64,000 bases of DNA from Chloroflexus sp. Y-396-1 (lineage in GTDB: Bacteria > Chloroflexota > Chloroflexia > Chloroflexales > Chloroflexaceae): contig NZ_KI911784.1 of the NCBI RefSeq assembly GCF_000516515.1, forward strand, positions 3,324,633-3,388,632. Direction: 5' to 3'. Shown piece after piece: positions 34,382-49,368 of the stretch. The translations under genes and the position numbers were made by a program. Within the stretch, counting starts at the first letter, position 1, and each line of letters begins with the position of its first letter. A model generated the notes under the pieces. The model did not search any database, had not been told where the DNA came from, and worked only from the letters and a program-made list of their open reading frames with translations.

Positions 34382-34849
34382 GTGTATCACGAACTCGATC
34401 CTCCCTACACTGCCGAAGATGTCGCTGTGCTGTTCAATCTGGTGCATAGCGAACTGATGGGTCAGAGTATGGAAACGCTCTTACAGTTTCTTCAGCGTTC
34501 CAATCTCTCAATGCCCCGTCTGGTGTCGTTAATGTACATTCAACGTCAAGGCGTGACAACTGTCACTGCATTGAGTGAACACCTCAATTTGGCGCTGGGT
34601 ACCACCAGTCAGATGATTGATCAACTAGTGCAAGATGGACTGGTTGAACGACGTGAAGCAGCGCATGATCGCCGTCAAAAACAGATTACCCTGACACCTG
34701 CTGGCGAGACACTTGTCGCCGAGGCACGTCAGATCAGGTTGGCAGAGGCAAGTCGTCATTTGCGACAGTTACCACCAGCATTGATTGAACAACTGGGACA
34801 GGCGCTCAGTGCTGCCTGTCGGGAATGGAATCTGATAACCAAATCTTGA
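34382..34849 (+). CDS. MarR-family transcriptional regulator
   Basis: 155 residues from GTG 34382, six bases after GGAGG; an in-frame TTG at 34352 lies inside the operator. The winged helix-turn-helix is plain: MPRLVSLMYIQRQGVTTVTALSEHLNLALGTTSQMIDQLVQDGLVERREAAHDRRQKQITLTPAGETLVAEA, with the DRR wing typical of MarR. Flanking helices form the dimer interface. The adjacent efflux pump gene starts 11 bp later, so this is the classic MarR-repressed drug-export pair, released by an unknown ligand. Confidence 0.92.
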   Translation: MYHELDPPYTAEDVAVLFNLVHSELMGQSMETLLQFLQRSNLSMPRLVSLMYIQRQGVTTVTALSEHLNLALGTTSQMIDQLVQDGLVERREAAHDRRQKQITLTPAGETLVAEARQIRLAEASRHLRQLPPALIEQLGQALSAACREWNLITKS

Positions 34850-34860
34850 GGGGCATCTTT

Positions 34861-36723
34861 ATGGCCACGACTACGACTCCCACAACGGTCACCACAACCC
34901 GCATTGATTACGCAGCTACGCTCGATCAACGGAGCAAAGTTCTCATCCTGGTTGGCGTATTACTCGGTCTGTTTCTCTCAGCGCTTGATCAAACCATTGT
35001 CTCTACGGCACTACCCCGTATCGTTGCCGATCTGAAAGGTATCGAGTTGATCGGCTGGGTCTCGACCAGTTATCTGCTGGCTTCCACGGCTATGGTGCCG
35101 ATCTACGGCAAACTGTCAGACATCTACGGACGTAAATATGTCTTACTGTTTGGGATCACGGTCTTTCTACTCGGTTCGTTGTTGTGCGGTCTCGCTGCCG
35201 ATATGACGCAGTTGGTGTTCTTTCGTGGTTTGCAAGGGTTTGGCGCCGCTGCGCTCACTTCGACGGCATTTGCCATCCCTGCCGATCTCTTCGCGCCGGC
35301 AGAGCGTGCACGGTACCTCGGCTTGTTTGGGGCCGTATTTGGCTTGTCGAGCGTCATCGGGCCATTTATCGGCGGTCTGCTCACCGACAATCTGAGCTGG
35401 CACTGGGTCTTTTTCGTCAACTTACCGTTAGGGATAGTTGCCCTTGGCTTTATTGTCGCTAAATTGCCACGTTTGCATAGTGGTCTCAAGCCTGCAATTG
35501 ACTATGCCGGTGCAGCAACGCTGCTGCTAACCGTGATTCCTTTCTTGCTGGCTCTCACGCTCGATAAGAATGACAATCCATGGACATCGCCGCTCATCTT
35601 GGGCCTGTTTGCGATCAGTGTGGTTGGGCTAATGTTCTTTCTGCTGATTGAGCGACGGGCCGAATCACCGATTTTGCCACTCCATCTGTTTCGGATTCGC
35701 ACGTTTACTTTGACTGCCCTGATTGGGGTGACAGTCGGTGCCACTCTTTTCGCGGCAATCTTCTTCCTTTCGCTCTATCTGGTTAATGTGTTAGGTGTCA
35801 GTGCCACGTCTGCCGGTACCACCCTTATCCCGCTCACCCTGAGTCTTGTGGTGGGGGCAATGGTCTCATCACAAATCGTGCAGCGCACCGGTCATTACAA
35901 GTGGGTCATCGTTGGTGGTATGGCCATTATCATTGGTGCCCTCTGGTGGTTGACAACCCTTACCCCCGACACGTCGATCTGGATGGTTCGGTTACGGATG
36001 ATTGTGCTGGGGCTGGGGTTGGGACCATCGATGCCTATCCTTAATCTGGCAATGCAAAATGCGGTTCCACGTACCGATTTGGGGGCAGCAACCGCTAGTC
36101 GCCAGTTCTTCCAGCAAATTGGACAAGTAGTCGGTTCGGCTGTCTTTGGTGCAATCTTGACCGGTGTTCTCACTACGACTCTGAGTGCGAATCTAGCGCC
36201 GATCCAGGCTCAATTGCCACCTGAACTGGCAGCTCGCTTTGACAGCAGTGCGTTACGTAATGGTATGAGCGCCGAGAACGCAGGTGGCGAGCCGGTTGAT
36301 CCGGCTGTCAAGATTGAGCAGGCAATTGCCGATCAATTTGCTGCCCGCCGCGAGGTGCTTTCACGGGCGTTGCGTGATGCCGATCCGGCAGCAATCGCAG
36401 CTTTGCGGAACGATCCGCAGTTCCCTGCGCAGCAAAAGGCGATGCTTGATATGATCAGCTCCCTACCAGTAGCAGCTCGCGAGCAGGCGTTGAGTCAGGT
36501 TTTAGCCCGCCTCGACGAGGCCGAGCAGACGGCACGTGCAGAAGGGCGGGCATTAGGGCAGCAAATCAGTGCGGCGTTGAAGGATGCCTTCACAACCAGT
36601 GTCACGACCATCTACTGGTACGCAGTCTGGATTGCACTGATTGGCTTCATCCTTTCCTTGTTCATTCCTGAATTGCCGCTCCAGCGTAGTTATGGTCAGG
36701 ATTTGCCACCGATAATGGAGTAA
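34861..36723 (+). CDS. DHA2-type (14-TM) MFS drug efflux transporter
   Basis: 620 residues from ATG 34861 (gaggggc upstream). Signature motifs of the EmrB/QacA group: LGLFLSALDQTIVSTALPRIVADL (TM1, motif D1), GKLSDIYGRKYVLL (motif A), RGLQGFGAAAL and the antiporter motif C region GAVFGLSSVIGPFIGGLL. Thirteen helices precede an unusually long soluble stretch (about 445-585) rich in Ala/Gln, which lies before the last helix; this exceeds the usual QacA layout. It probably exports hydrophobic compounds by proton antiport, under control of the MarR gene upstream, and the unit ends at a strong terminator. Confidence 0.92.
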   Translation: MATTTTPTTVTTTRIDYAATLDQRSKVLILVGVLLGLFLSALDQTIVSTALPRIVADLKGIELIGWVSTSYLLASTAMVPIYGKLSDIYGRKYVLLFGITVFLLGSLLCGLAADMTQLVFFRGLQGFGAAALTSTAFAIPADLFAPAERARYLGLFGAVFGLSSVIGPFIGGLLTDNLSWHWVFFVNLPLGIVALGFIVAKLPRLHSGLKPAIDYAGAATLLLTVIPFLLALTLDKNDNPWTSPLILGLFAISVVGLMFFLLIERRAESPILPLHLFRIRTFTLTALIGVTVGATLFAAIFFLSLYLVNVLGVSATSAGTTLIPLTLSLVVGAMVSSQIVQRTGHYKWVIVGGMAIIIGALWWLTTLTPDTSIWMVRLRMIVLGLGLGPSMPILNLAMQNAVPRTDLGAATASRQFFQQIGQVVGSAVFGAILTGVLTTTLSANLAPIQAQLPPELAARFDSSALRNGMSAENAGGEPVDPAVKIEQAIADQFAARREVLSRALRDADPAAIAALRNDPQFPAQQKAMLDMISSLPVAAREQALSQVLARLDEAEQTARAEGRALGQQISAALKDAFTTSVTTIYWYAVWIALIGFILSLFIPELPLQRSYGQDLPPIME

Positions 36724-36769
36724 GGCTGACCTGTTGGTATCCAGTTCTTCTTTCCTCACAACACAACCC

Positions 36770-36807
36770 TATTCGCCTCAACACTGTTTGAGGCGAATAT
36801 CTTTTTT
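36770..36807 (+). terminator. Intrinsic terminator of the marR-efflux operon
   Basis: TATTCGCCTCAA (36770-36781) pairs with TTGAGGCGAATA (36788-36799), loop of 6 bases, followed by six T (36802-36807). Confidence 0.92.
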
Positions 36808-36883
36808 CTTATAGTACCAATACTTGCCATATCAGGTATAATACGAACAAGGAATCGTATCCATATCTCTGTGAGGTGTCATC

Positions 36884-37885
36884 GTGACGACCCAGCGCAC
36901 TCGTCGTGGTCGTGGCCGTAAACGGAGTTCAGCATTGACGGTACAGCGTCGGCTATGGCTTGTCAGCCGCTTTATCCGTGGCCCAGCAACTCCAACAGAG
37001 CTGATCGCCGATGCTCGGCGGGTGTTCAGTGAGTCGATCTATCCATCCAATGCCCTGGTTGCGCTTCGTCACGATTTCCACGCACTGCGGAATGAGTTTC
37101 TCTGTACTATTGAACGTCAATCTGATGGTAGGTATGCCCTGACCGACGTAGGACGCCTGACGCTACTGAATCTACCAGACGAAGAGTTAGAGGCGCTGGC
37201 GTTCCTCATATCATTTTTCAGTGAAGGGAGTTGGCCAGCGGCATTTCACGTGCGTTCATTATTTGAGCGGATCGTTGCCCTGTTACCGTCTGAACAACGC
37301 TTGACGCTTCAGCAACGGCAGGTGTGGCAGATTGAGCTTCCCCAGAGTAGCACGACCATTGATCAAAAATTATTGACCCGCTTACGCCGGAATCTCCGAC
37401 GCCATGCCATCCAGTTTCGCTACCGATCAAACTACAGCGACGAACTCGAATCACACCGCGCGGCGCCGGTACGTCTGTTTGTGCGTGATGGTCATACCTA
37501 CCTTGAAGCCTACTGCTACAGTGCACCTCATCAATCGATCATTGGTCAGTACATTCCTTACCGCGTTGACCGGATCATTCCCGAATCGCTCCACGTTGAG
37601 CGGCGGGTGTTACCCCCTGAGCTACCACCGCGCCGAACCTGGACGTTGCGGTATCGTTTGTCGCCGCAGGTGGCCCGGAACCGTGACATTTCGCTCTGGT
37701 TTCCGCAAAGTACGGTGACATACCACCCTGACGGTAGTGCCGAAATATGTGCTCAGACAAGTGATCTCTGGCAAGCCGAACAGATACTCCTGCGTTACCG
37801 TGAGCATTGTCAGGTGCTTGAGCCAGTAGAGTTGATCGAGCAGATACGAAAGACCATTGCTCGCATGCAGGAACTCTATCCATAG
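36884..37885 (+). CDS. WYL-domain transcriptional regulator
   Basis: 333 residues. A basic N-terminus (RTRRGRGRKRSS) leads to a helix-turn-helix at about 20-100 (TVQRRLWLVSRFIRG...LRHDFHALRNEF). The central WYL domain includes IQFRYRSNYSDELESHRAAPVRLFVRDGHTYLEAYC, corresponding to the usual P-x-x-L-x-x-x-x-G-x-W-Y-L-x-A, with Y-L-E-A retained, and a C-terminal extension WCX-like. WYL proteins sense nucleotide ligands or act in DNA damage and phage defence control. GTG 36884 follows gaggtg. TATAAT at 36837-36842 is a good -10 but lacks a clear -35. No adjacent target operon is apparent. Confidence 0.82.
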   Translation: MTTQRTRRGRGRKRSSALTVQRRLWLVSRFIRGPATPTELIADARRVFSESIYPSNALVALRHDFHALRNEFLCTIERQSDGRYALTDVGRLTLLNLPDEELEALAFLISFFSEGSWPAAFHVRSLFERIVALLPSEQRLTLQQRQVWQIELPQSSTTIDQKLLTRLRRNLRRHAIQFRYRSNYSDELESHRAAPVRLFVRDGHTYLEAYCYSAPHQSIIGQYIPYRVDRIIPESLHVERRVLPPELPPRRTWTLRYRLSPQVARNRDISLWFPQSTVTYHPDGSAEICAQTSDLWQAEQILLRYREHCQVLEPVELIEQIRKTIARMQELYP

Positions 37886-37933
37886 CCGGCTGAAGCGTGT
37901 TGCCAGAGAGCGATGGTATCTCTTCCATGTGTC

Positions 37934-38136
<203 letters not shown>

Positions 38137-38220
38137 TTCCATTGTGCTTACCAGCCGCAATGCGCGAACAGATGATGCGAATGCTCCTTTTCGTTGCGGT
38201 AGGTACGATGCGCGTGTGAA

Positions 38221-39087
38221 CTATCGGCAGAGAAAGGCCAGGTAGAAGACAAGAATAATCACAATGCTTACTACAAGCAGGACTTTCGAGAAACGTGGCT
38301 GCAATTGCTGAAGCGACATACTACGTTGCAGCTCCGCAAGTTCAGCCTGAAGCGCAGCAAGATTTACCTGTCGACGTGCCACCAATGGTTCGCGCATCAT
38401 GTTGATGAGACGCTGGAGGCTTGGCGGCAGTGTTTCCACCGCCAACAGGTCGTCGAGTACCTGAGCGAGAGCGAAGAAATCACTCCGCTCATCAATGGCT
38501 CCACCTCCGAGTTGTTCGGGTGGGGTATATCCAGGTCGGCCAATATCGGCCAGCTCCGGAACAACCTGACCGCGACGACGGCTGAGGCCGAAGTCGATAA
38601 GAGAAACATTACCGTCGTTTTTAACGATAATGTTTCGCGGATGCAGATCACCATGAACGATCCCATTTGCGTGCAAGATGCGGAGCACGTGACACAGGTT
38701 GCGCGCAATTTGTAGCGCATCGGCTGGTCGACCGGCAGCCAGAATTGAGTCAAGTGTCTCACCGTCAAGGTAACTCTCCACGAAGAAGTATCTCGGTGGC
38801 TTTCCGGCTATCTTGCCCATAGTGATAAACTGCGGAAAGTATCGCTTTTTGTCGCTGTCTGGTGATAGTGCAGCGATCACCTTCGTCATCATGATCTCAT
38901 GCAAAAATGCCCGGGCAGCTTTGCGTAGCGAGACACCACGCGACGCAGGCGCCAGCCACTTAATGACAACGAGTCGTTCTGTATCGTGGTCGAAGGCCAA
39001 ATCGACGATACTGTGAGCGGTACGAGCCAACTGACGGATAACTTCGAACCGATCCCCAAATTGTTGGCTACTGGCGCGACAGTTCAT
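38221..39087 (-). CDS. Membrane-anchored Hanks-type Ser/Thr kinase, atypical
   Basis: 288 residues. The kinase core has VVIKW (ATP lysine), a HEI-type helix C, IVHGDLHPRNIIV (catalytic loop, HGD instead of HRD), SLIDFG (DFG) and a P-E activation segment end (GYTPPEQLGG). The glycine-rich loop is not recognisable: the place reads RQLARTAHSIVDLAF. A single C-terminal helix (VLLVVSIVIILVFYLAFLC) anchors it with no external domain. HGD kinases tend to be RIO/Bud32-like or lipopolysaccharide-kinase-like, so the substrate may not be protein. ATG 39087 follows ggaggg and overlaps the stop of the preceding gene, implying a two-gene unit. Confidence 0.82.
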   Translation of the reverse strand: MNCRASSQQFGDRFEVIRQLARTAHSIVDLAFDHDTERLVVIKWLAPASRGVSLRKAARAFLHEIMMTKVIAALSPDSDKKRYFPQFITMGKIAGKPPRYFFVESYLDGETLDSILAAGRPADALQIARNLCHVLRILHANGIVHGDLHPRNIIVKNDGNVSLIDFGLSRRRGQVVPELADIGRPGYTPPEQLGGGAIDERSDFFALAQVLDDLLAVETLPPSLQRLINMMREPLVARRQVNLAALQAELAELQRSMSLQQLQPRFSKVLLVVSIVIILVFYLAFLCR

Positions 39088-39539
39088 CACGATCCCTCCA
39101 GGAGTATGGCCAATCTGTGTAATGAGGTCAACCCGGTAAAGGTGTATGTCTCATTGCCTACAGTGATGGTTAACGTTCCACTATCGGCAAGGGCTTCCAA
39201 AGGGTGACGATGAAGGTGATACTGACTGATATACACACGCTCAATAATCTTGCGCGAGCCAAACGGAAATCCTTCATCGACAATAATGAGATGCGGGGTA
39301 ATAGTGAGCGCAAACTGATATTCTCGAAGCCCTATGATAATCGCTGTGATGAGTGCCAATAAGCTAGCGACCGTGAAGCCGATAGCTACGCCGGGGAACG
39401 CAAACGATGGCTTCGCTGCCTGAAATGCCAGTGCTAACAGGCTCCCATGGAGGGCGGCGAGGCCCATGTAGTGCGGCAGACGCCGCAGCGGATGGCGACG
39501 GAACGTGGTCGGGGGGTACAGATGGGGGATCATTGCCAT
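39087..39539 (-). CDS. Two-helix membrane protein, PH-like tail
   Basis: 150 residues. Two hydrophobic helices (about 25-43 and 48-69) precede a soluble beta-rich part: EYQFALTITPHLIIVDEGFPFGSRKIIERVYISQYHLHRHPLEALADSGTLTITVGNETYTFTGL. This resembles the bacterial PH-like domain (bPH/DUF304 style), where TITPHLIIVDEGFPFGSRKI fits strands 1-3. It is translated just before the kinase gene and overlaps its start (TGATG), so it is probably a partner. The start is firm: aaggaggg before ATG 39539. Family assignment is moderate. Confidence 0.65.
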   Translation of the reverse strand: MAMIPHLYPPTTFRRHPLRRLPHYMGLAALHGSLLALAFQAAKPSFAFPGVAIGFTVASLLALITAIIIGLREYQFALTITPHLIIVDEGFPFGSRKIIERVYISQYHLHRHPLEALADSGTLTITVGNETYTFTGLTSLHRLAILLEGS

Positions 39540-39871
39540 AGGTCCCTCCTTCGCCGATGGGCGCTGTATAAAGTGTGTTCTGCCATCCTGATGCTAACGA
39601 ATAACCTGCCTACTGCCGAGCCAGGTTGATTCTAAGGTGTAAATCACCTCTTTTTTGCCATCATCTTTTGGGTATATAAGGGTATTGGTATTCTTACGAG
39701 TAGTATACGTAGAGTGCAGTAGAAAGTCATCCATCAGAAGACTCATGATTCCTTAGGTTGTGATCGTCAAATGGATCGTGCTTCGTCCCCACGATTCATG
39801 ATGAAGAAATGCACGTAGATGCAGCAATTTGGCACTTGAAAACCGTAATAGCAGCTCCAAACGTTGGTAGG
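39540..39871. other. Intergenic stretch, no gene seen
   Basis: A gene-free 330 bp, AT-richer than average (tttttgccatcatcttttgggtatataagggtattgg region). No promoter pair, RNA or repeat recognised with confidence. Confidence 0.45.
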
Positions 39872-40083
39872 CAACACCGGCGTCTCCTCGATACGCTGAA
39901 ACAGGGTTGCAACGGGTTCAGCGTTGGTGCTGCGAAGCACGCCTGGTGGCCCTCACCTTTCCCCTCGCCCTACGGGGAGCGGAAGGGGGAACGTGGGGTG
40001 CGGGAGTGAACGAATATTGGCAAGCTCCCAAATGGTTGCACAGGTACGGTACGTGCCCGATGAGAAATCGTTTGATCAGGCTC
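39872..40083 (-). repeat. Family-2 repeat, copy C (inverted)
   Basis: Read on the minus strand it starts GAGCCTGATCAAAC (end at 40083), then gggcacgtaccgtacctgtgc, the purine/pyrimidine core, and ggcgtgcttcgcagcacc...gcaaccctgtttcagcgtatcgaggagacgc, matching copy A segment by segment. The far terminal repeat is lost. Confidence 0.65.
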
Positions 40084-40429
40084 TTAGCGCTATGTTTCTC
40101 GGGTTTGCATCCCTGGGTGTGTGGATACCATCCAGGACAGATCGTGTGGGAGTGCGCTATCACCGTGTCGTTCTTCGTCATGGTGAATCTATTGGTTCCC
40201 TCGCTGAAGTAGGTTGAGAACTCACTACTCCCAATATGGTGACGGGCACAGTGAGTAGGAGTCATCTTCCCCTGACAGTAGCCCGACTAGCCAGTTCGTC
40301 TGTACCTGCGCTCATAGGGCGCGAGATGTCTGGTCGTGACACAGAAGCACAAGCAAAGATACCGCATAGAGTATCGCTGCGGATCGGGCTACCGTATCAA
40401 GAGCAGGATCACGCTTGTTTCCCGATGAC

Positions 40430-40737
40430 AATAAGTTCTGATGTGAAAATATACACAAAATATATTCAAACAACATGATAAAAATATATGATAATTTTTT
40501 GTTGTGGTTTCTTAACTTCGCTATCCTAAATGTCTGTTATATTTCAAGCATAATACCTTCCCGTAATACATTTCATAACCAACAAGAACCATCGTGCTCA
40601 CATGTACATATCGGCTTGCCGATATTTCTCCATACCACACACGTTTCATACAGAGGTGCATCGGGTGAGGATGGAGAAGAGGGAGGGTATAGCGTGTGCA
40701 AGGTTGATCAAAATTAATCAAAAAGGAGTTATTGGCA
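40430..40737 (+). promoter_or_regulatory. AT-rich leader with an 8-bp palindrome before the Fe-S gene
   Basis: This 300-bp stretch is distinctly AT-rich compared with the window (e.g. aaaatatatgataatttttt). It contains ATATCGGC-tt-GCCGATAT (40608-40625), a perfect 8-bp dyad suitable as an operator. The gene's ribosome site AAGGAG lies nine bases before ATG 40738. No confident -35/-10 pair. Confidence 0.5.
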
Positions 40738-42261
40738 ATGGAAGCAGAGATGCAGGCATTTGTCGATTCGTTGCGTCACAATCTCACAGCCGAGGATGTG
40801 GTCAATCTCGAAGCGTGTATGAATTGTAAGATGTGCGGTGAGGCCTGTGCGTGGTATCTGGTTACCGGCGATGAAAAGCTGCATCCAACCCACAAAACCG
40901 GTTTGATCCGCCAGATTTACCGTCGGTACATGACCCTAGAGGGGCAGATCGGCGGTGCTCTCGGATTGGTGCCCACGCCAACCCTTGCCGATCTAAAGGA
41001 GAACATGCAGTACTTTTGGGCCTGTACTGCGTGTGGACGCTGTACCCTGGCCTGTCCTTCCGGGATCAGTATTCGCCGAATTGTGCGTCTTGCCCGTGCT
41101 GCTTATGCCGATTCCGGGTTGAGTTATGCTAATCCGACGATTCGTTCGATCATCGAAAATACCGATCGTCGTCGTCATAGTTTTGGCTTAACTGCCGCTC
41201 AAGTCCTCGGTCGAGTCGGTCTTTTTCTGCGTAGTGAGGGACTGGAAGCGCCGGTAAATGTTCAAAACGCCGAGTTTCTCTTTGTGTGTCCGGCAGCGGG
41301 CAATACAAAAATTCCCGATTACGGTATTAAACTTATCAAAATCCTTAACGCTGCTGGTGTGAGTTATACGATTTCACCCTACGTGATTGATACCGGCACT
41401 GAAATCGATCATATCGCTGTCCATCATAAACTTTCTAAGCAGATGTTAGAAGACTGGGAGCAAGAAGCGGATCGCCTGGGTGTTCAGAAGATTCTCCTGG
41501 TCGAATGTGGTTGTGATACTCGTACTCTCTATGCCGAGGCGTCTGAAACGCTTGGGCGCCCATTCCGCTATCCTATAGTGAGTGTTGACGCTTTAATGCT
41601 CGACCTGATCAAGCAGGGTCGATTGCCAATTGAGAAAACTCATCTGAAAGTAACGCTCCATGATCCATGTTATGCGACTCGTCTTTCTGGACTCGGTGAC
41701 CTGTTCCGTGAACTGTTGAACCTGGTGACCGATAACTTTATCGAGATGACCCCTAACCGTGAATACAACTATTGTTGCAACGGTGGGGCCGGTGGTATGC
41801 GTTTGCCCGAAAATACCGCTACCCGGCGTAAAATCTCGGTGTTGAAGGCCAATCAGATTCGTGCTACCGGCGCCGATTTTGTTACCTCTCCCTGTGTGGT
41901 CTGTACGTTGTCGCTGGAAGACACCTGCCAGACCTACCAGTTGTCACCATCGGGCGATCGTATGGCATTGGTGCTCTTTGAAGTAGTGTACGCCGCGATG
42001 GAACCGGCACTGGCTAAACTCGGTGAGCTGGATCGGATGCGGGTTCCGGCTGTGCTGCGTAACCGTGATCACGAATTCTTCATCGCGCACAGTGTCGAGG
42101 GGCAGATGATGCGGCTTATGCAGCAGCCAGATTTTCCAGAGCTGCTCGATTGGCTGGAACAAGACGACATTGTCAAGCGCTTTAGCAAAGACCATCCGCA
42201 AGTCTACGACGATATTCGGGCATTGCGCGAGATGGTGATGAATTGTGAGAATTGCGACTGA
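40738..42261 (+). CDS. HdrD/TmcB-like iron-sulfur oxidoreductase (CCG domains)
   Basis: 507 residues. Two [4Fe-4S] clusters are encoded near the N-terminus: CMNCKMCGEAC and CTACGRCTLACP. Two cysteine-rich CCG-type domains follow: VECGCDT...HDPCYATRL and YNYCCNGGAGG...SPCVVCTLSLEDTC, the latter the type that holds the special catalytic [4Fe-4S] cluster in heterodisulfide reductase subunit D. Such proteins (HdrD, DsrK, TmcB) pass electrons between a membrane cytochrome b and a disulfide or other soluble partner. A cytochrome-b-like gene follows 53 bp later, so the pair should form a membrane-linked complex. The true electron partner in this organism is unknown. Confidence 0.87.
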   Translation: MEAEMQAFVDSLRHNLTAEDVVNLEACMNCKMCGEACAWYLVTGDEKLHPTHKTGLIRQIYRRYMTLEGQIGGALGLVPTPTLADLKENMQYFWACTACGRCTLACPSGISIRRIVRLARAAYADSGLSYANPTIRSIIENTDRRRHSFGLTAAQVLGRVGLFLRSEGLEAPVNVQNAEFLFVCPAAGNTKIPDYGIKLIKILNAAGVSYTISPYVIDTGTEIDHIAVHHKLSKQMLEDWEQEADRLGVQKILLVECGCDTRTLYAEASETLGRPFRYPIVSVDALMLDLIKQGRLPIEKTHLKVTLHDPCYATRLSGLGDLFRELLNLVTDNFIEMTPNREYNYCCNGGAGGMRLPENTATRRKISVLKANQIRATGADFVTSPCVVCTLSLEDTCQTYQLSPSGDRMALVLFEVVYAAMEPALAKLGELDRMRVPAVLRNRDHEFFIAHSVEGQMMRLMQQPDFPELLDWLEQDDIVKRFSKDHPQVYDDIRALREMVMNCENCD

Positions 42262-42314
42262 AGCGGTACCTCAGTGGATGCTTGAGTAATGACCGGCTAC
42301 GGAAGGAGAGAGCT

Positions 42315-43133
42315 ATGATAGAGCTACTGAATATCGTTGCGCCGGTGGCGATGGCGATTTTCATTGTCGGTGTCGGGTTGCGTTTAGGGCGGTTTACGTG
42401 GGCTTTGGTGACGAAACGCCGTTTCCGTGGTGTATCGCCTACGTTTGAGTCACCACCACCGCGTATGGGGGTCATTCCCGCCCTCTATGCTGTGCTGTTT
42501 GGGCCGTTTAACCATTTCTACAAGCGTGCCAATCCGGTGTGGGGTCGAGGTTATCTCTTTTACCACGTCGCGATCATCACTGAAGTGATCGGCTATACTA
42601 TTTCGGCATTGATCGTTTTTGCTCATATCATTGTTGGTCGTCCGGTTCCTGATGTTTCATTACATCTTGCTGAAAGCTTTAACTATTCGCCAGCGAATCT
42701 GCTCGCGATCATCTTCGGTAATGGTGAGCACTTACAGGCTAACTTTCTCTTCGGTGAGTTTGGCTCTCTCTTCATCGGGGTTACATGGATCGCAGTGGGT
42801 TTTGCCGTGGTCGGTAATTTGCACTTAATGGTAGCTTTGGTGCGGAAGTGGAGTGGCGCGGTGGTCGGTGATATCGATCGGGCGGCGCAGGGGATTCGTA
42901 CCCCTGGTCGTTACGCCTGGGATCGGATCGTTGTGCGCACTATTATTTTCTGCATTATCTGGACAGAGCTGTTTGCCCGTTTACACCTCGTGCCCGGTAT
43001 TGTCTATCTGCATGCTCTCCTTGGGCTGACGCTGTTTGTGCTTTTGCCGTTCACTTACCTGTTCCACATGGTCTATAACTTTCTGGCCGTTTTCTATGCC
43101 GTGCGTCGGCGTATGGCGCGGACGATTGCCTGA
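42315..43133 (+). CDS. NarI/DsrM/TmcC-like cytochrome b membrane subunit
   Basis: 272 residues from ATG 42315, with aaggag just upstream. About five or six helices: LLNIVAPVAMAIFIVGVGLRLGRF, LFYHVAIITEVIGYTISALIVFAHIIVG, FIGVTWIAVGFAVVGNLHLMVALV, TIIFCIIWTELFARL, and LHALLGLTLFVLLPFTYLFHMVYNF. Histidines in the helices (YHVAI, HIIV, NLHLM, LHALL, FHMVY) are suitable heme-b ligands as in nitrate reductase gamma subunits. It anchors the HdrD-like partner and probably exchanges electrons with the quinone pool. The unit ends in a long hairpin. Confidence 0.82.
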   Translation: MIELLNIVAPVAMAIFIVGVGLRLGRFTWALVTKRRFRGVSPTFESPPPRMGVIPALYAVLFGPFNHFYKRANPVWGRGYLFYHVAIITEVIGYTISALIVFAHIIVGRPVPDVSLHLAESFNYSPANLLAIIFGNGEHLQANFLFGEFGSLFIGVTWIAVGFAVVGNLHLMVALVRKWSGAVVGDIDRAAQGIRTPGRYAWDRIVVRTIIFCIIWTELFARLHLVPGIVYLHALLGLTLFVLLPFTYLFHMVYNFLAVFYAVRRRMARTIA

Positions 43134-43138
43134 TAATC

Positions 43139-43175
43139 GCGGTACAGGTGCAGAAAATTTCTGTGCCTGTACCGC
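43139..43175. terminator. 18-bp hairpin between convergent genes
   Basis: gcggtacaggtgcagaaa (43139-43156), one-base loop, tttctgtgcctgtaccgc (43158-43175); 16 of 18 positions pair. It lies six bases after the redox-pair stop and before the convergent histidine kinase stop at 43335. Confidence 0.75.
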
Positions 43176-43334
43176 CTGTGGCAATAGCGCAGTGTCGGAA
43201 CGATGATATGCCTGCACGGGGTGAAGGTGATATGAACTCCTGAATCGCCATTTCGGCAGTCTAAGGGATGAATCTGACCTGCTCGCATCCTGGGTTTCGT
43301 ACAACTCTCTCCGCCTTCTCTGTAGCTCAGTGCG

Positions 43335-45506
43335 TTATACGGTGTTGTCCAGACTGGCAGAGTAGATTGGCAGGGTAAATGAAAAGCTGCTACCTCTCCC
43401 CACAACACTCTGCACCCAGATCCGTCCTCCGTGTAGTTCGACCAACAGGCGGGTGATGTACAGCCCCAGACCGATGCCACTTTTCTGGCGGGTATTGCTG
43501 TTATCAACGCGCTGAAATCGCTCAAAAAGCTTTACCTGATCTTCAGGCGCGATACCGATCCCTTCATCGCGCACCACGATCAGCATCCATTGTCCGGGAG
43601 GATGATTCGTTGGTAAGTCATCCGCAGCAGCTTGCCGTACCGTAAGCTGAATTTCACTTCCTTCGGGGCTATACTTGATCGCGTTGCTCAACAAATTGAA
43701 AATGATCTGTTTCACCTTGTCATAGTCGGCAAAGACCGGCGGCAATGGTGTACGAACATCGATTAACAGTTTGTGATTCACCAGTTGCGTATGGAGTTGC
43801 ATTGTTAGCTCTTCAATCACCTGCCAGAGGCCCACAGCATAGCGATTGAGCTTCACCACACCGGCTTCCAGTCGTGAAACATCGAGTAAGTCTTTCACCA
43901 GCTTGTACAGACGCTCAGCCTCGGTTGAAACCGTTATTAAGAATTCGCGCTGGCTTTCGCTGTCGAGGTCTTGCCGGTTCAAGAGGATTTCGGTGTAACC
44001 CAGAATTGAGGTGAGTGGGGTACGTAGTTCATGCGATACGATCCCGATAAACTCATTTTTGATCCGATCAGACTCTCGTTCCCGTGTGCGGTCGCTGACT
44101 ACCCATAAGCGTCCGGTCAGTTGTTGTTGGCTGTCACGGGTGGGAACCGATAGCACATGCAATTCCTGATACGGTTGTCGGAGTTGAAGGGTTGTTTCCA
44201 AGACCCGATCGGGGTTGTGCTGACCAAGATCGCAAAATTCGCTGAGCCGGAACGGATCGTTGAGTCGCGTTAGCAGGTGCTCAACCAGATCAATACCGAC
44301 GTAAAACGAAGGACGTTGTAGATGCTCGGTCATATTCCATACCTGATACCAGGCTGGATTGGCGCGAATCACGCGCCCATTGAGATCGAGCAGCGCCAGA
44401 CCGATTGGTAGGCTGCTGAAAACCTGTCCGAGGTGGTATGACGTTTCATAAGCAGTCTGGTAAGACATCGCACGGGCCAATGGTCGGGCGGTGCGTTCGC
44501 GCAGAGCGTCAATAAAAGCCAGAACTTCTTCGTTGAAGGTATTGGCCCGGTGGCTGTGGAGAATGAGCACCGCCAGCGCTCGGTCATCGGCAATGATCGG
44601 TGCTGCCAGCTCAGCGCGAAAGAGCATGGTGGGGGGCAAGCCCGGCTCACGTCCGGCATCGCGAACCAGTAACGGACGCCGCATCTGCACTGCCTGTCCG
44701 GCCAGTCCTGTCTCCCAACTCCATCGCTGGCGTGGTAATGTGGGTAGCGCAGCGCCAGAGCGCTCTGTTTCATAGCCCTCGCACAAATGGAGTATCAGCT
44801 CACGCCGGTCGTGATCGACCATGGCAATCGCTCCGGCTTCGGCGCCACTCCCCTCTAGCGCCCGGCGCAAGACGATCCCCGCCAATTCATGCAGGTTTAT
44901 TGTGCGATCAAGCTGTTCGTTCAGAGCGATAATTTTCTGGCGCAGCGATGGATTGAGGGTCAGGCCAGGTGGCGTCTCACCGGCAAAGCGTGGTGTCGGC
45001 AATTGCGGTGAGCGCATTCCTTCCTGGGCAATGGCCGCTGCCAGCAGTGGTTTGAGTGACTCGATAAGCTCGCCGATCCGCCCTCCAAAGTGTCGTTGAT
45101 CATTGCTTCGTAATTCGAGGATACCCCACAGCTTGCCTCCCCAGAAGATTGGTGCTCCTAGATAACCGGCGGAGATCACCGGCAGCCCTTCGAGAGATTG
45201 ACCGGCACTGCCAAGGGCAATCGTTTTAACAACCGTTTTTCCGCCCAGGGCAACCGAACGGGTCAGACTATCGTCCCAGGGATAGGCCCACGACTCCGGC
45301 GAGAAAATCTGCTGACGAGGTACTCCTGGTCGAGCCGCTTGTAACCAGCACGTCAACCGACCATCGCGGTAACGGGTAGCGATCCGCAATAATTCAAACA
45401 AACGATGAACACGCTGGGTTAGCGGCTGCTCCTCTTGCAAGAGACGAAAAGCCGCACTGAGCAGATGTAACAGACCGGTTGTCGGGTCATCAAGTTCGCG
45501 TGTCAT
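43335..45506 (-). CDS. Soluble hybrid-input sensor histidine kinase (GAF-GAF-PAS-HisKA-HATPase)
   Basis: 723 residues, no membrane helix. Two GAF domains (about 25-175 and 205-365, the second with GLAGQAVQMRRPLLVRDAG), a PAS domain (about 375-480, VFSSLPIGLALLDLNGRVIRANPAW), the phospho-acceptor region FIGIVSHELRTPLTSILGYTE, and the ATPase boxes: NLLSNAIKYSPEG (N), DEGIGIAPEDQ (G1), FERF (F), and SGIGLGLYITRLLVELHGG (G2). Ligands are unknown; no cysteine pattern for a bilin is evident. No response regulator gene adjoins it. Its promoter places transcription within about two bases of the ATG. Confidence 0.93.
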   Translation of the reverse strand: MTRELDDPTTGLLHLLSAAFRLLQEEQPLTQRVHRLFELLRIATRYRDGRLTCWLQAARPGVPRQQIFSPESWAYPWDDSLTRSVALGGKTVVKTIALGSAGQSLEGLPVISAGYLGAPIFWGGKLWGILELRSNDQRHFGGRIGELIESLKPLLAAAIAQEGMRSPQLPTPRFAGETPPGLTLNPSLRQKIIALNEQLDRTINLHELAGIVLRRALEGSGAEAGAIAMVDHDRRELILHLCEGYETERSGAALPTLPRQRWSWETGLAGQAVQMRRPLLVRDAGREPGLPPTMLFRAELAAPIIADDRALAVLILHSHRANTFNEEVLAFIDALRERTARPLARAMSYQTAYETSYHLGQVFSSLPIGLALLDLNGRVIRANPAWYQVWNMTEHLQRPSFYVGIDLVEHLLTRLNDPFRLSEFCDLGQHNPDRVLETTLQLRQPYQELHVLSVPTRDSQQQLTGRLWVVSDRTRERESDRIKNEFIGIVSHELRTPLTSILGYTEILLNRQDLDSESQREFLITVSTEAERLYKLVKDLLDVSRLEAGVVKLNRYAVGLWQVIEELTMQLHTQLVNHKLLIDVRTPLPPVFADYDKVKQIIFNLLSNAIKYSPEGSEIQLTVRQAAADDLPTNHPPGQWMLIVVRDEGIGIAPEDQVKLFERFQRVDNSNTRQKSGIGLGLYITRLLVELHGGRIWVQSVVGRGSSFSFTLPIYSASLDNTV

Positions 45507-45514
45507 TGTTGTGT

Positions 45515-45542
45515 ATTGTAGTCAACCCCGAGTAGCTGTCAA
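45515..45542 (-). promoter_or_regulatory. Promoter of the histidine kinase, suggesting a leaderless mRNA
   Basis: On the minus strand TTGACA (45542-45537), 16-bp spacer, TACAAT (45520-45515). Transcription would start near 45508, two bases before the ATG at 45506, with no ribosome site. Confidence 0.65.
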
Positions 45543-45616
45543 TTATCTCGTTATGTCCTTATGCTATGATATGCTATATCCATCGGCATAACGGTGGATT
45601 ACTAAGGAGTCTAGTC

Positions 45617-46030
45617 ATGTTTACGGCAATTGATCATATTGGCTTTGTCGTAGCCGATCTAGAAGCGGCCATCGATTTTTATCGTACTGCTTACGATGTG
45701 ACGGAATGGGAACGGATCGAATTGCCTGAACGACATGCGGCAATTGGGGTTGCGCGATTTGGTGATGTTCTTATCGAGCTGATCGCTCCAACGAGTGATC
45801 AGGCCAGCTTTGCCCGTTTCTTGCGTGAAAAAGGCCCAGGGATGCACCATATCGCATATCGAGTTGATGATATACAGGCTGCATTGGCTACGCTCCAGGC
45901 GCGTGGTTTACCACTGATTGACCGTGAACCGCGTCCTGGCATCCACAACACGCTGGTAGCATTTGTTCATCCGAAAGCCGGTGGTCAGGGTGTCTTAGTG
46001 GAGCTGGTGCAGCACCGCAGGCCAGAATAA
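45617..46030 (+). CDS. mce: Methylmalonyl-CoA epimerase
   Basis: 137 residues, a full-length vicinal-oxygen-chelate protein of two beta-alpha-beta-beta-beta modules. Metal ligands are seen at H in IDHIGFVV, E in LIELIAPT, H in GMHHIAYRV and E in VLVELVQ. It interconverts (R)- and (S)-methylmalonyl-CoA in the propionyl-CoA route, which fits the 3-hydroxypropionate metabolism of Chloroflexus and complements the decarboxylase set at the right end. ATG 45617 has aaggag upstream. Confidence 0.93.
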   Translation: MFTAIDHIGFVVADLEAAIDFYRTAYDVTEWERIELPERHAAIGVARFGDVLIELIAPTSDQASFARFLREKGPGMHHIAYRVDDIQAALATLQARGLPLIDREPRPGIHNTLVAFVHPKAGGQGVLVELVQHRRPE

Positions 46031-46124
46031 TGCAAAGGTTCCTCTGCGGGGATGGGTGAAGATGATGCGCTCGCCCACCCCGCCAAGAATAGGACGTTCA
46101 GCACTGATATTGGGAGCAGAATGT

Positions 46125-47105
46125 ATGACAGATAGCAGTAGCGAGGATCGCCGCCTGCTGGTGAGCATGAGCATCGGTCAGACAGCGTATGCAGCATGGG
46201 CCCGTCAGGCACGTCGCGAACGTTTCTTTAACATTGCACGGCTGCTAGAAGCTTCGGCAGCAGTGAAGCAGGTTCGAGCCGAGCACGCACTCCATCGTTT
46301 AGGAGAAGTATCCAGGACGATAGCTAACATTGATCGAGCGCTAGCCGGTCTAGAGCCGGAGGCTGTAGCGACCGGTCCGGTCACCGGTACCAGCCCATTT
46401 CAACGTGAGCTACTTGAACGAGCGGTGCGCGCACTTGCCGCCGGTTGTGATCTTACCTACACCGAATTAGGCGATCTCTTCGTGTGCAGCACATGCGGTC
46501 ATCTCATGGAAGGTGAGCCGCCACCATTCTGCCCCGAATGCGGTACAGTCCGTGAGGGTTTTCTCGGTTTCCGCATCGTTGATGGTATGGGAACATTAGG
46601 GCCATCTACGATTGTGCGTCGTCTGGAACAGGGGATGCGTACTGTTCAGGATTTGGTAGGTGGTCTGACGGAAGAGCAACTATCAACGCCGGTGAACGGT
46701 CTTCCTGCCTTTAAGGATCTGATCGGTCACCTGATCGATATGGATATCGTGTTTCGTGAACGGGCATGGATGATTCTCGAGACGAATCAGCCCAAACTAT
46801 CTTCTGCCCACCCGCCAACCCTCGGGCACGCGGTGAAATATCGTACCGTACCTATCGATGATCTCCTCGAACAGTACATTTCAAGCCGTCAGCAGACGTT
46901 AAATCTGTTGCGCGGTTTAACTCAGGCGGCGTGGCAGCGAATCGGCTTCCACGAAATCTTCGGCCCTATACCACTCTTACATCAGGGGAATTGGGTGGTT
47001 TCGCACGAGCAGGGGCACCTGATTGAATTAGCTCAGATGCGACACAATCTCTTGCACAAGGGTAATCAGGTGGCTACGGTAGTCTATGAGGTATTCAACT
47101 CGTAA
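46125..47105 (+). CDS. Rubrerythrin-like / zinc-ribbon / DinB fusion protein
   Basis: 326 residues. The N-terminal part (about 15-115) is an all-helical four-helix-bundle-like region (AYAAWARQARRERFFNIARLLEASAAVKQVRAEHALHRLG), followed by a rubredoxin-type ribbon CSTCG...CPECG (about 124-144): the rubrerythrin plan, with few of the diiron Glu residues obvious. The C-terminal half (about 165-325) is a DinB/YfiT-like bundle with the usual three His (IGHLIDMDIVF, HEIFG/SHEQGHLIEL) that bind metal. The fusion suggests a metal-dependent thiol or oxidative-stress function. ATG 46125 has only a weak ggag. Ends at a bidirectional terminator. Confidence 0.75.
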   Translation: MTDSSSEDRRLLVSMSIGQTAYAAWARQARRERFFNIARLLEASAAVKQVRAEHALHRLGEVSRTIANIDRALAGLEPEAVATGPVTGTSPFQRELLERAVRALAAGCDLTYTELGDLFVCSTCGHLMEGEPPPFCPECGTVREGFLGFRIVDGMGTLGPSTIVRRLEQGMRTVQDLVGGLTEEQLSTPVNGLPAFKDLIGHLIDMDIVFRERAWMILETNQPKLSSAHPPTLGHAVKYRTVPIDDLLEQYISSRQQTLNLLRGLTQAAWQRIGFHEIFGPIPLLHQGNWVVSHEQGHLIELAQMRHNLLHKGNQVATVVYEVFNS

Positions 47106-47109
47106 AAAT

Positions 47110-47139
47110 GGGAAGGGCAGATTCGTATCCGCCCTTCCC
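47110..47139. terminator. Bidirectional hairpin between convergent genes
   Basis: GGGAAGGGCAGAT (47110-47122) pairs with ATCCGCCCTTCCC (47127-47139) with one mismatch and a 4-base loop. Confidence 0.8.
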
Positions 47140-47151
47140 TGGGGCATCGTC

Positions 47152-48162
47152 TCACGTCAAATCCAGCCCACTCAGGCTATCGTAGAGCACATCGAGGTTC
47201 TCTAGCGCCAGACCGGTACCAATAGCAACACACGAAGCTGGTTGGTCGGCGACATAACAGGGTACGCCGGTGACCTCGGTTAGCAAATCGTTGATACGAC
47301 GCAGCATCGAACCACCACCAGTCATCACCATCCCTTTGTCGATAATATCCGAGCTTAATTCGGGTGGCGTTTCGACCAGCACCGCTCGCACCGCGTTCAC
47401 GATAGCCTCTAATGGCTCTTGGATCGCCTCGGTAATTTCGTTGCTATCGACCTGTATTGTGCGCGGGAGACCGGTTACTTGATCGCGACCGCGAACCTGC
47501 GTTACCAGTGGCTTATCGAGCGGTAGGGCTGAACCGATTTCGATCTTCACCGCTTCGGCAGTTCGTTCGCCGATCAACAAGTTGTACTTACGCTTGATAT
47601 ATGATGCAATCGCTTCATCGAATCGATTGCCGCCCACCCGCACCGATGTACTGACGACAATATCGTTTAGCGAGATGACTGCTACTTCCGTGGTACCACC
47701 ACCAATGTCAATGATAAGGTTTCCCGAGGGCTGGGCAATCGGAATATTAGCGCCAATCGCTGCGGCTAGTGGTTCGCGAATCAGATACGCTTTACCGGCT
47801 CCGGCTTCTAGCGCAGCATAGCGTACTGCACGCATTTCAACGCTAGTAACGCCGGCGGGAATACAGATCATCACTTCAGGTCGCGAGAAGCGAAACCTGC
47901 CGGCAGCACGGCCGATAAAATGGCGTAGCATCTCTTCGGTCACCACATAATCGGCGATCACACCGTTACGCATTGGGCGCACGACTTCGATACTCTCTGG
48001 TTCGCGGCCCAACATCGCCATCGCTTCCGCTCCCACTGCGCGCACACGCCCATCGCGCGTACTCAACGCGACGACCGATGGTTCCGAGAGAACGATACCC
48101 TTTCCTTTAACGTACACCAAGACATTGGCTGTGCCAAGATCAATCCCGATTTTGCGGGCCAT
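47152..48162 (-). CDS. mreB: Rod-shape/actin-like protein MreB
   Basis: 336 residues. Actin-fold nucleotide motifs are intact: [29 protein letters not shown] (phosphate 1), [17 protein letters not shown] (phosphate 2), and [15 protein letters not shown] (adenosine). MreB filaments direct wall growth along the cell body, consistent with long filamentous cells. ATG 48162 with aggaac upstream is chosen, and begins [10 protein letters not shown] as MreB proteins do. mreC and mreD are not adjacent, and the neighbour is unrelated, so this copy is a lone gene. A TATAAT occurs on the minus strand near 48243. Confidence 0.93.
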
Positions 48163-48249
48163 AATCGTTCCTACTGAAGAAATTGTGTTTATTACCGGCA
48201 ATGTGCATCAAGACATGCACATTACACATGATCGCGCCGTATTATAGCA

Positions 48250-48530
48250 AATTTAAGCACCCCTGTGTGAGCGCATGTCTGAGCGTCATGGGGGCAACGT
48301 TTCCAGACGTCTTCGATCTGGGAGCTTGGGCCTCTGGCCCCTGTCGTGCAGCACCTTACTAGAGGCGAGACTATACCTGTTCCAAGCGATGCAGTAATGG
48401 GCATAACCGGTGAACGATGCTCATTCTCAGTCTGTCTGACAGGGAAGGTTTGAGCGCAACGCATACGTTTCCCCTCCACGATGGCAGGGGTGTTCACCGT
48501 GTTCAGGACCCGTGACACCTAGCGGCCCTC
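48250..48530. other. Intergenic stretch, no gene seen
   Basis: No supported gene or RNA. A TATAAT on the minus strand near 48238-48243 probably serves mreB. The rest reads as non-coding, running into a family-2 repeat. Confidence 0.45.
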
Positions 48531-48672
48531 ACCTTCCCCCTGGCCCCTTCTGCTTCCCCACGGGAAGCGGAAGGGGTAAGGTGGGGGCGGGAGCGAAAGC
48601 ATATTGGTAACCTCCCACGCAATGGCTGCACAGGCACGGTACGTGCCCAATGAAAAGTTTTTGATCACGCTC
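48531..48672 (-). repeat. Family-2 repeat, copy D (inverted)
   Basis: The terminal TTTTTGATCACGCTC (48658-48672) preceded, reading leftwards, by gggcacgtaccgtgcctgtgc, a ccattgcgtgggagg tract, cgctcccgccccc and the purine/pyrimidine hairpin core. The other terminal repeat is absent. Confidence 0.65.
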
Positions 48673-48814
48673 TAAGACTGCTAAGGCCCTAATTGAACAG
48701 TCCAGAGAGATGCGGCAGAATGTGTCTGGCACCCTTCATATTCCTGGGTAGAAAAGAATGCGGTTGAAGCGGATTTTCAACCCCGGCTCTCGCGATGCGA
48801 TGAAAAACAGACAA

Positions 48815-48849
48815 TAAAAAAAACCCCTTCACATGCAACGTGGAAGGGG
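48815..48849 (-). terminator. Intrinsic terminator of the atp operon
   Basis: On the minus strand CCCCTTCCAC, a 7-base loop, GTGAAGGGG, with a single bulged base, then a run of eight T. It lies 36 bases after the atpC stop. Confidence 0.9.
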
Positions 48850-48884
48850 TAAGCTCAGTGGTATAAGCCCCGCACAATGGCCTG

Positions 48885-49304: not shown

Positions 49305-49331
49305 AGATTGCTCCTTCTACCTGCCATACAT

Positions 49332-49368
49332 CGTCCTCGACGGCAGGAATCGACTGCCGTCGAGGACG
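49332..49368 (-). promoter_or_regulatory. 15-bp hairpin between atpD and atpC
   Basis: CGTCCTCGACGGCAG (49332-49346) and CTGCCGTCGAGGACG (49354-49368) form a perfect 15-bp stem with a 7-base loop and no T-run. It starts just after the atpD stop and could stabilise upstream mRNA ends or reduce read-through into atpC. Confidence 0.75.

What the first reader, a model, noticed from the sequence alone, without database searches (positions are those of the whole stretch)
40430..43175. HdrD-like/NarI-like redox module behind an AT-rich, palindrome-bearing leader
A two-gene complex resembling TmcBC or DsrMK of sulfate reducers, but without their cytochrome c, DsrC or sulfite-reductase partners nearby, in a phototroph. 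The unusual AT-rich upstream region with ATATCGGC-tt-GCCGATAT suggests dedicated control or acquisition. The soluble partner may be a new electron carrier.
Basis: partly seen in the sequence, partly recalled or inferred. Interest (0 to 1): 0.6.

Follow-up and report, generated by a model that had tools for sequence, protein, structure and literature searches.

The report
Orphan membrane redox gene pair
A two-gene membrane redox module in a green photosynthetic bacterium is real; in most of its close relatives it sits beside, and appears to have been transferred together with, genes of the 3-hydroxypropionate CO2-fixation cycle, and it forms its own branch of a known enzyme superfamily whose soluble partner here is still unknown.

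Summary
Both genes are real: an HdrD/DsrK-like Fe-S protein (40738-42261) and a NarI-like cytochrome b (42315-43133). They form a clade apart from the DsrK, TmcB, HmcF, Isp2 and EtfD-type proteins tested, with a cysteine set of their own. DsrC is absent from all 16 pair-bearing Chloroflexales genomes tested. The closest solved structure is mycobacterial EtfD (ETF:menaquinone). Likely job: two-electron transfer between an unidentified cytoplasmic partner and menaquinone, direction unknown.

The finding missed the main context. In 6 of 8 Chloroflexus genomes and 5 of 6 Roseiflexus-type contigs the pair sits beside 3-hydroxypropionate bicycle genes. HdrD and Mct trees both unite Roseiflexus with Chloroflexus, which the ATP-synthase tree rejects, so pair and pathway genes apparently moved together. 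In the window's genome the pair lies 0.85 Mb from that cluster. Members also occur in Hydrothermarchaeota (about 70% identical), Altarchaeota, Leptospiraceae and a Peptococcaceae MAG without 3HP neighbours, so a 3HP role is inferred, not shown.

The AT-rich leader is real but not conserved. The dyad is single-copy and of a kind common in the window, so it is no evidence of regulation.

The parts
40738..42261 (+). HdrD/DsrK-like iron-sulfur subunit, 507 aa
   Evidence: Pfam Fer4_8 and CCG; NCBIfam best DsrK 176 bits, cut-off 400; AF2 pLDDT 88.9; best fold match EtfD 9ojn Z 26.0, 409 aligned, rmsd 3.3
42315..43133 (+). NarI/DsrM-like membrane cytochrome b subunit, 272 aa
   Evidence: Pfam Nitrate_red_gam 19.3 bits, sub-threshold; AF2 pLDDT 82.5; top 8 VIA matches all E. 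coli NarI, Z 9.0-9.6; Foldseek alone gave no match below E 0.3
40816..40848 (+). first CX2CX2CX3C cubane motif, C27-C37
   Evidence: invariant in 32 family and 17 TmcB-type outgroup rows
41023..41055 (+). second CX2CX2CX3C cubane motif, C96-C106
   Evidence: invariant in 32 family and 17 TmcB-type outgroup rows
41287..41514 (+). N-terminal CCG domain, reduced site C184, C257, C259
   Evidence: all three invariant in 32 of 32 family rows; at these columns the DsrK has P, C, H, HmcF V, C, H, Isp2 F, C, H, TmcB V, C, H, and two EtfD-type proteins C, C, H plus a further cysteine
41668..41904 (+). C-terminal CCG domain with complete noncubane [4Fe-4S] motif C311, C346-C347, C386-x2-C389
   Evidence: invariant in 32 family and 17 TmcB-type outgroup rows
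42564..43067 (+). span holding the invariant histidines H84, H233, H251 of the cytochrome b subunit (candidate heme ligands)
   Evidence: invariant in 23 of 23 aligned rows
40723..40728 (+). ribosome-binding site AAGGAG
   Evidence: sequence
40434..40600 (.). AT-rich leader, 28.7% G+C
   Evidence: no significant BLASTN counterpart in the relatives' loci searched
40608..40625 (.). inverted repeat ATATCGGC-TT-GCCGATAT, no evidence of function

Best explanation
A two-subunit, membrane-bound menaquinone-linked oxidoreductase, a clade of its own in the DsrMK/HdrDE/EtfD superfamily. Proposed path: a soluble two-electron partner meets the noncubane [4Fe-4S] cluster (C311, C346, C347, C386, C389) of the HdrD-like subunit; electrons pass the family-specific C184/C257/C259 site and two cubane clusters to heme b in the NarI-like subunit (H84 with H233 or H251) and so to or from menaquinone. 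In Chloroflexus and Roseiflexus it belongs to the gene set that travels with the 3-hydroxypropionate bicycle and probably balances the quinone pool during anaerobic, light-driven (auto- or mixotrophic) growth. Shown: gene structure, conserved ligands, predicted folds, separate clade, shared transfer history with Mct, linkage in relatives. Inferred: cofactors, menaquinone as partner, direction, physiological role. Unknown: the soluble partner.
For: Folds: EtfD Z 26.0, NarI Z 9.0-9.6. EtfD carries electrons from ETF through noncubane/linear and cubane clusters and one bis-His heme b to menaquinone (PMC13083937, passages). Ligands invariant. A NarI-like frame was found at 29 of 32 loci used as HdrD tree rows. 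Monophyly 100/100* against 17 TmcB-type rows and 99/99* against DsrK, TmcB, HmcF, Isp2 and EtfD-type rows; profile scores drop from 454 to 165 bits among complete frames. 3HP linkage: 6 of 8 Chloroflexus genomes, 5 of 6 Roseiflexus-type contigs, the sixth with Mct 15 kb away on the same contig. Shared history: HdrD tree joins the two genera 97/99*, Mct tree 98/93*, AtpA tree rejects it, p-AU 1e-47. Co-occurrence in 400 Chloroflexota, apparently the same draw twice: pair 20, Mct 24, both 18.
Against: Linkage to 3HP may be one inherited event: no 3HP gene was found on 20 of 20 other pair-bearing contigs (13 Chloroflexales, 7 other; several short), nor beside the pair in the window or in G004. 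meh and the pair are 377-1757 bp apart in the 8 loci measured, so probably not one operon. 3HP without the pair: 5 of 19 relatives (G009, G010, G015, G018, G039); pair without 3HP: G012, G024. The archaeal and Leptospiraceae members argue for a more general role. Genus-level association among phototrophs alone is weak (Fisher p 0.06), and no test was corrected for phylogeny. No cofactor, quinone or activity was measured. The HdrD copy at L091 and the member at L122 have no detected NarI-like frame, L090 ends too early to tell, and at L034/L076 and L080 only part of the NarI profile matches. Trees with single DsrK, HmcF and Isp2 rows carry long branches.
Confidence: 0.6

Rival explanations
1. 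A second ETF:menaquinone oxidoreductase (EtfD/EMO type), split into two genes, for acyl-CoA dehydrogenase electrons.
For: EtfD is the best structural match and the best PDB sequence match of the HdrD profile, 56 bits over profile positions 92-409 of 513.
Against: The genome has a separate 713-aa NarI-Fer4-CCG fusion (L051:9466-11607), and 34 of 41 relatives have a similarly weak match in an open frame of 650 aa or more (domains not checked in each). The EtfD-type rows fall outside the family, and the N-terminal CCG cysteines differ. No etf gene showed among the window neighbours scanned; other loci were not scanned for it.
Confidence: 0.15
2. A DsrMK-like module acting on a protein or small-molecule thiol/disulfide.
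For: Best NCBIfam model is DsrK (176 bits; 171-195 in three other members); complete noncubane motif.
Against: DsrC not found in 16 of 16 pair-bearing Chloroflexales nor in 5 of 7 outside genomes; score far below the 400-bit cut-off, whereas the DsrK of JdFR-16, an organism holding both, scores 553 and branches apart.
Confidence: 0.15
3. Quinone-reactive module of an uptake [NiFe] hydrogenase, like Isp1/Isp2 of Thiocapsa, encoded away from the hydrogenase genes.
For: G039, which lacks the pair, has a small subunit-Isp1-Isp2-large subunit hydrogenase operon, its Isp2 30% identical to this HdrD. In 191 kb of C. aggregans-like G005 that hold a hydrogenase large subunit, no Isp2-like hit was found and I saw no cytochrome b frame near it; that view covered 14 kb with a crude frame choice that also hid the small subunit, so it is weak.
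Against: Isp2 falls with DsrK and TmcB/HmcF, 95/92*, outside the family. No hydrogenase among the window neighbours scanned; other pair loci were not scanned for it. Co-occurrence with hydrogenases not tested.
Confidence: 0.12
4. Linkage to 3HP genes is hitch-hiking: a general ferredoxin- or flavodoxin-linked menaquinone module, transferred by chance next to the pathway genes. (Overlaps with the best explanation on mechanism, not on role.)
For: Linked only in Chloroflexus and Roseiflexus; family also in archaea and spirochaetes without 3HP neighbours.
Against: 18 of 20 pair-bearing Chloroflexota genomes have Mct, six of them with pair and Mct on different contigs of the draft assembly, outside the two genera where they are linked.
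Confidence: 0.35

Closest known systems
EtfD / EMO (M. smegmatis EtfD, PDB 9ojn)
   Same: Overall soluble fold (Z 26.0), CCG plus two cubane sites; a heme b membrane part and menaquinone are expected here by analogy
   Different: EtfD is one fused chain, here two genes; N-terminal CCG site has C184, C257, C259 where the genome's own EtfD-type protein has C, C, H and a further cysteine; the genome has that fusion besides the pair
DsrMK of sulfate reducers and sulfur oxidisers
   Same: NarI-like plus HdrD-like subunits; best NCBIfam model
   Different: 176 of 400 bits needed; no DsrC found; separate clade; C184 and C259 are P and H in the one DsrK aligned
TmcBC / HmcEF of sulfate reducers
   Same: HdrD-like plus cytochrome b subunit; noncubane motif
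   Different: 148 of 735 and 127 of 750 bits; separate clade; C184 and C259 are V and H; no CXXCH protein among 12 neighbours checked
Isp1/Isp2 of [NiFe] hydrogenases
   Same: Cytochrome b plus HdrD-like protein
   Different: Not between hydrogenase genes in the window; Isp1 of G039 is 225 aa with weak similarity; Isp2 30% identical and outside the clade
HdrDE of Methanosarcina
   Same: Two-subunit membrane heterodisulfide reductase architecture (as described in PMC13083937, passages)
   Different: Compared only through that paper's text; CoM-S-S-CoB not expected in this bacterium (recalled knowledge)

Membership tests
DsrMK(JOP) | DsrK equivalog score at or above curated cut-off | tested here: not met
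   176.2 bits against 400
DsrMK(JOP) | DsrC partner in the genome | tested here: not met
   PF04358: 0 of 16 pair-bearing Chloroflexales (control E. coli rings)
DsrMK(JOP) | groups with DsrK in a tree | tested here: not met
   one curated DsrK (L146, 553 bits) falls outside the 99/99* family clade; long branch
TmcABCD | TmcB equivalog score | tested here: not met
   148.1 against 735
TmcABCD | c-type cytochrome TmcA encoded alongside | tested here: not met
   no CXXCH in 14 ORFs from 34825 to 53310, pair included
Hmc complex | HmcF equivalog score | tested here: not met
   126.6 against 750
EtfD/EMO | fused NarI-HdrD single chain | tested here: not met
   two separate genes, 53 bp apart
EtfD/EMO | EtfD soluble fold | tested here: met
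   Z 26.0, rmsd 3.3, 409 aligned
EtfD/EMO | accepts electrons from ETF | not testable with these tools
   needs biochemistry
Isp1/Isp2 hydrogenase module | located between small and large [NiFe] subunits | tested here: not met
   window neighbours; seen instead for a different gene pair in G039
CCG noncubane superfamily | complete C..CC..CxxC motif | tested here: met
   32 of 32 family rows
NarI/DsrM-type cytochrome b | NarI fold | tested here: met
   top 8 of 861 VIA-aligned chains are E. coli NarI, Z 9.0-9.6, above the next at 6.8; Foldseek alone inconclusive
3HP bicycle gene set | physical linkage to 3HP genes | tested here: inconclusive
   6 of 8 Chloroflexus and 5 of 6 Roseiflexus-type contigs, not the window, not 20 other contigs
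3HP bicycle gene set | required for or regulated with the bicycle | not testable with these tools
   needs mutants or expression data

The most novel reading that the evidence does not exclude
A dedicated, previously unassigned redox component of 3-hydroxypropionate-type photoautotrophy or photomixotrophy: a menaquinone-linked noncubane Fe-S complex with its own second cluster site that couples quinone-pool redox state to the pathway (for example through glycolate/glyoxylate, thiol or low-potential carrier chemistry), horizontally transferred with the pathway, of a lineage shared with Hydrothermarchaeota and Altarchaeota and probably using an unrecognised soluble partner.
Probability: 0.27. 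Interest if true: 0.75.

Novelty: new variant of a known kind. Interest (0 to 1): 0.5.

Why it matters
The enzymes of the 3-hydroxypropionate bicycle are known, but how the quinone-based photosynthetic chain of Chloroflexus and Roseiflexus is tied to it is, in my own (recalled) view of the field, less clear. A conserved redox pair that apparently moved with the pathway is a concrete candidate, testable in cultured strains. The family also suggests gene transfer between phototrophic Chloroflexota and subsurface archaea.

Tried and rejected
Dyad as regulatory element: rejected as unsupported. The near match in G001 lies in an open coding frame, and its surroundings show no significant BLASTN similarity to the window's leader.

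AT-rich leader as conserved control region: no significant BLASTN hit in 14 loci of relatives or beside the sensor-kinase gene in five genus genomes (in G007 only 386 bp were available there). Rfam found nothing at 38-44 kb.

DsrC partner: rejected for Chloroflexales. It is present in G416 (JdFR-16), which also has its own DsrK (553 bits), and in G419 (Peptococcaceae).

Operon with meh: unlikely given gaps of 377-1757 bp in 8 loci.

FdhD plus FdhF/YdeP-type oxidoreductase as partner: next to the pair in Chloroflexus but convergent, not found at the Roseiflexus-type loci, and kept beside meh without the pair in G004; considered unlikely.

Mend made on checking: I had taken the 17 outgroup rows for mixed DsrK/Tmc/Hmc proteins. 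Of the 16 I then scored, 13 pass the TmcB cut-off and three fall just below it, 695-724 bits; L113's own row was not scored. A new tree with one curated DsrK and one curated HmcF was therefore run.

Literature: searches found no paper in the held library with Caur_0181 or Caur_0182. The listings showed none that I recognised as treating this pair; I did not open PMC3949148 (holds Chloroflexus and HdrD), PMC6338057 or PMC8076601 (Roseiflexus and DsrK). I read found passages, not whole texts, of PMC3150298, PMC8004040, PMC12542760, PMC13083937, PMC6775978, PMC5826079 and PMC10892978. The numbers 0181/0182 are my inference from order between meh (Caur_0180) and Caur_0184; that G003, G005 and G030 are C. 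aurantiacus, C. aggregans and Roseiflexus RS-1 is recalled from genome sizes. Zarzycki 2009, Klatt 2007 and Shih 2017 were not read.

Absences in structure lists: no DsrMK, Tmc, Hmc or HdrDE chain appeared in the PDB searches; this excludes nothing. The NarI profile found no PDB sequence at E 0.001.

Dropped rows: the tree left out L098/L049 (broken frames) and L099 (partial), duplicate contigs, and outgroup loci L107, L115, L117, L123, L124. Searches used 25 chosen rows each. One search used a wrong reading frame for G011 in both trees and was replaced.
Full report
WHAT IS THERE. The window is part of a 4.89-Mb single-contig genome of a Chloroflexus-type phototroph: it has two reaction-centre (PF00124) genes, and records of its nearest relatives by HdrD are titled Chloroflexus. 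dN is 0.07-0.10 for HdrD and 0.14-0.17 for NarI against saturated dS of 2.1-4.1 in three comparisons each. So both are functional genes.

ANATOMY. All eight cubane cysteines and the five cysteines of the C-terminal noncubane motif are invariant in 32 family rows and 17 TmcB-type outgroup rows. In the N-terminal CCG domain C184, C257 and C259 are invariant in the family, while the outgroup has V, C, H. A curated DsrK has P, C, H there, a curated HmcF V, C, H, an Isp2 F, C, H, and two EtfD-type proteins C, C, H plus a cysteine at the column of T219. The combination C184 plus C257-G-C259 is thus found only in this family among the proteins aligned. H84, H233 and H251 are the invariant histidines of the cytochrome subunit in 23 rows. 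AlphaFold models (HdrD pLDDT 88.9; NarI 82.5) match M. smegmatis EtfD (Foldseek E 4e-13; VIA Z 26.0, rmsd 3.3, 409 aligned) and E. coli NarI (Z 9.0-9.6; Foldseek alone not significant). EtfD's solved wire from ETF through Fe-S clusters and a bis-His heme b to menaquinone (PMC13083937, passages) is the best mechanistic template. That this pair binds heme b or menaquinone is inference.

A FAMILY OF ITS OWN. Against NCBIfam the protein scores 176 bits for DsrK (cut-off 400), 148 for TmcB (735), 127 for HmcF (750); three other members behave alike. Among frames in hand, complete family members score 454-1051 bits with the family profile and the next protein 165. The genome scan, made with two peptide patterns, found 52 loci: Chloroflexus, Roseiflexus, Oscillochloris and other Chloroflexales, one Hydrothermarchaeota MAG (Ca. 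Pyrohabitans jungbluthii JdFR-16, 69-70% identical), two Leptospiraceae MAGs, one Peptococcaceae MAG and three Altarchaeota-type MAGs (43-46%), then mostly Desulfobacterota-type proteins at 22-29%, which proved to be TmcB or close to it where scored. Being pattern-based, the scan can miss divergent members. The JdFR-16 pair lies two frames from an arginyl-tRNA synthetase and near an eRF1-type release-factor gene, which speaks for a truly archaeal contig. Trees: the family is separated from the 17 TmcB-type rows at 100/100* and, with DsrK, HmcF, Isp2 and EtfD-type rows added, at 99/99* (single long rows noted by the program). A NarI-like frame is found at 29 of 32 loci used as rows; L090 ends shortly after HdrD, and L091 and L122 show none.

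In 6 of 8 genus genomes the pair follows meh at the end of the 3HP cluster mch-mcl-mct-smtB-smtA/meh, and likewise in 5 of 6 distinct Roseiflexus-type contigs (outer genes are cut off on some contigs; Pfam identities of the cluster; gene names for C. aurantiacus from PMC3150298, passages). In the sixth, Mct is 15 kb off on the same contig. In the window's genome the mct-to-meh part lies at C1:4214536-4220232, 0.85 Mb away, and downstream of meh lie a frame with a sub-threshold AAA_16 match and a caspase-domain gene. In G004 the FdhD match ends about 90 bp from that of meh with no pair between. Most simply, adjacency was lost in these two genomes while the pair was kept. No 3HP gene was found around the pair on 13 other Chloroflexales contigs or 7 contigs outside the phylum; several are short.

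SHARED TRANSFER. Roseiflexus and Chloroflexus HdrD form one clade (97/99*), excluding Oscillochloris and other members of the group f1 to which Chloroflexus belongs. Mct does the same (98/93*), while AtpA puts Roseiflexus with its own group f4, G039 included, and rejects the joint clade (p-AU 1e-47). Identities agree: Roseiflexus HdrD is 85-86% identical to the window's against 59-70% for other f1 genera; Mct 91-93% to that of G005 (90-91% for three more) against 72-83%; AtpA 79-80% against 73-89%. One transfer of a block carrying 3HP genes and the pair is the simplest reading; its direction is not tested.

CO-OCCURRENCE. In 41 relatives the pair is in 16, 3HP genes (strong Meh or Mct) in 19, both in 14. 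All 16 have reaction-centre genes, as do 29 of 41; 13 phototrophs lack the pair and none of 12 genomes without reaction centre has it. In 400 Chloroflexota genomes, apparently the same draw twice: pair 20, Mct 24, both 18. Fisher p is 3e-24 by genome and 2e-7 by genus in that sample, 0.03 over 27 genera of relatives and 0.06 over 21 phototroph genera. These tests ignore phylogeny, so I treat the association as moderate. Exceptions: G012, G024 and G261 have the pair without Mct; G009, G010, G015, G018, G039, G276, G283 and G254 have Mct without the pair.

PARTNER. DsrC was found in none of 16 pair-bearing Chloroflexales. The EtfD role has its own fused paralogue. A hydrogenase partner is possible: G039, which lacks the pair, has a small subunit-Isp1-Isp2-large subunit operon, and I saw no cytochrome b frame near a hydrogenase gene of G005, though that view was crude. 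Isp1/Isp2 are described as a heme b membrane protein and a heterodisulfide-reductase-like protein in PMC10892978 (passages).

LEADER AND DYAD. The AT-rich leader is real and among the lowest-G+C stretches of the window but has no counterpart in the relatives' loci searched. The dyad is one of 42 comparable perfect repeats (nested ones counted apart), single-copy, and not found at relatives' loci. I set no weight on either.

VERDICT. A genuine, conserved redox module; a new clade of a known superfamily; the most likely action is menaquinone-linked two-electron transfer with an unknown soluble partner; plausibly part of the 3HP-associated gene set, not proven.

Noticed in passing
window 25614-33697: A 2-oxoacid:ferredoxin oxidoreductase pair (TPP_enzyme_C 25614-26639, POR_N/POR 26953-28800) lies beside a CobN/Mg-chelatase (BchH-like) gene (29885-33697), 7-15 kb upstream of the redox pair.
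   Followed up: no
L050:7192-14925 (G039): Isp-type [NiFe] hydrogenase operon (small subunit-Isp1-Isp2-large subunit), with a GcvH-like lipoyl-carrier gene and two DsrE-family genes upstream on the same strand, in a Roseiflexus-related phototroph that lacks the pair.
   Followed up: partly
L083 (JdFR-16, Hydrothermarchaeota): Archaeal HdrD about 70% identical to Chloroflexus, closer to it than Oscillochloris is (58-60%), and sister to the Chloroflexales rows: a bacterial-archaeal gene transfer of unresolved direction. The same genome has a separate curated DsrK (L146) and DsrC.
   Followed up: partly
L091 and L092 (G024): Two HdrD copies in one Chloroflexaceae MAG; only one has a detected NarI-like neighbour.
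   Followed up: no
L100:3135-3437 (Altarchaeum): A 100-aa N-terminal HdrD-like fragment lies upstream of a 462-aa protein with a sub-threshold ferredoxin match, 6 kb from the full-length copy.
   Followed up: no
L151:15241-19370 (own genome): Downstream of meh, where most other Chloroflexus carry the pair, lie a frame with a weak AAA_16 match and a caspase-domain (Peptidase_C14 plus TCAD2) gene, perhaps a conflict system.
   Followed up: no
L095:7237-9519 and L096:12791-15115: In Leptospiraceae an EtfD-type protein with ferredoxin and CCG domains lies directly after the pair on the same strand.
   Followed up: partly
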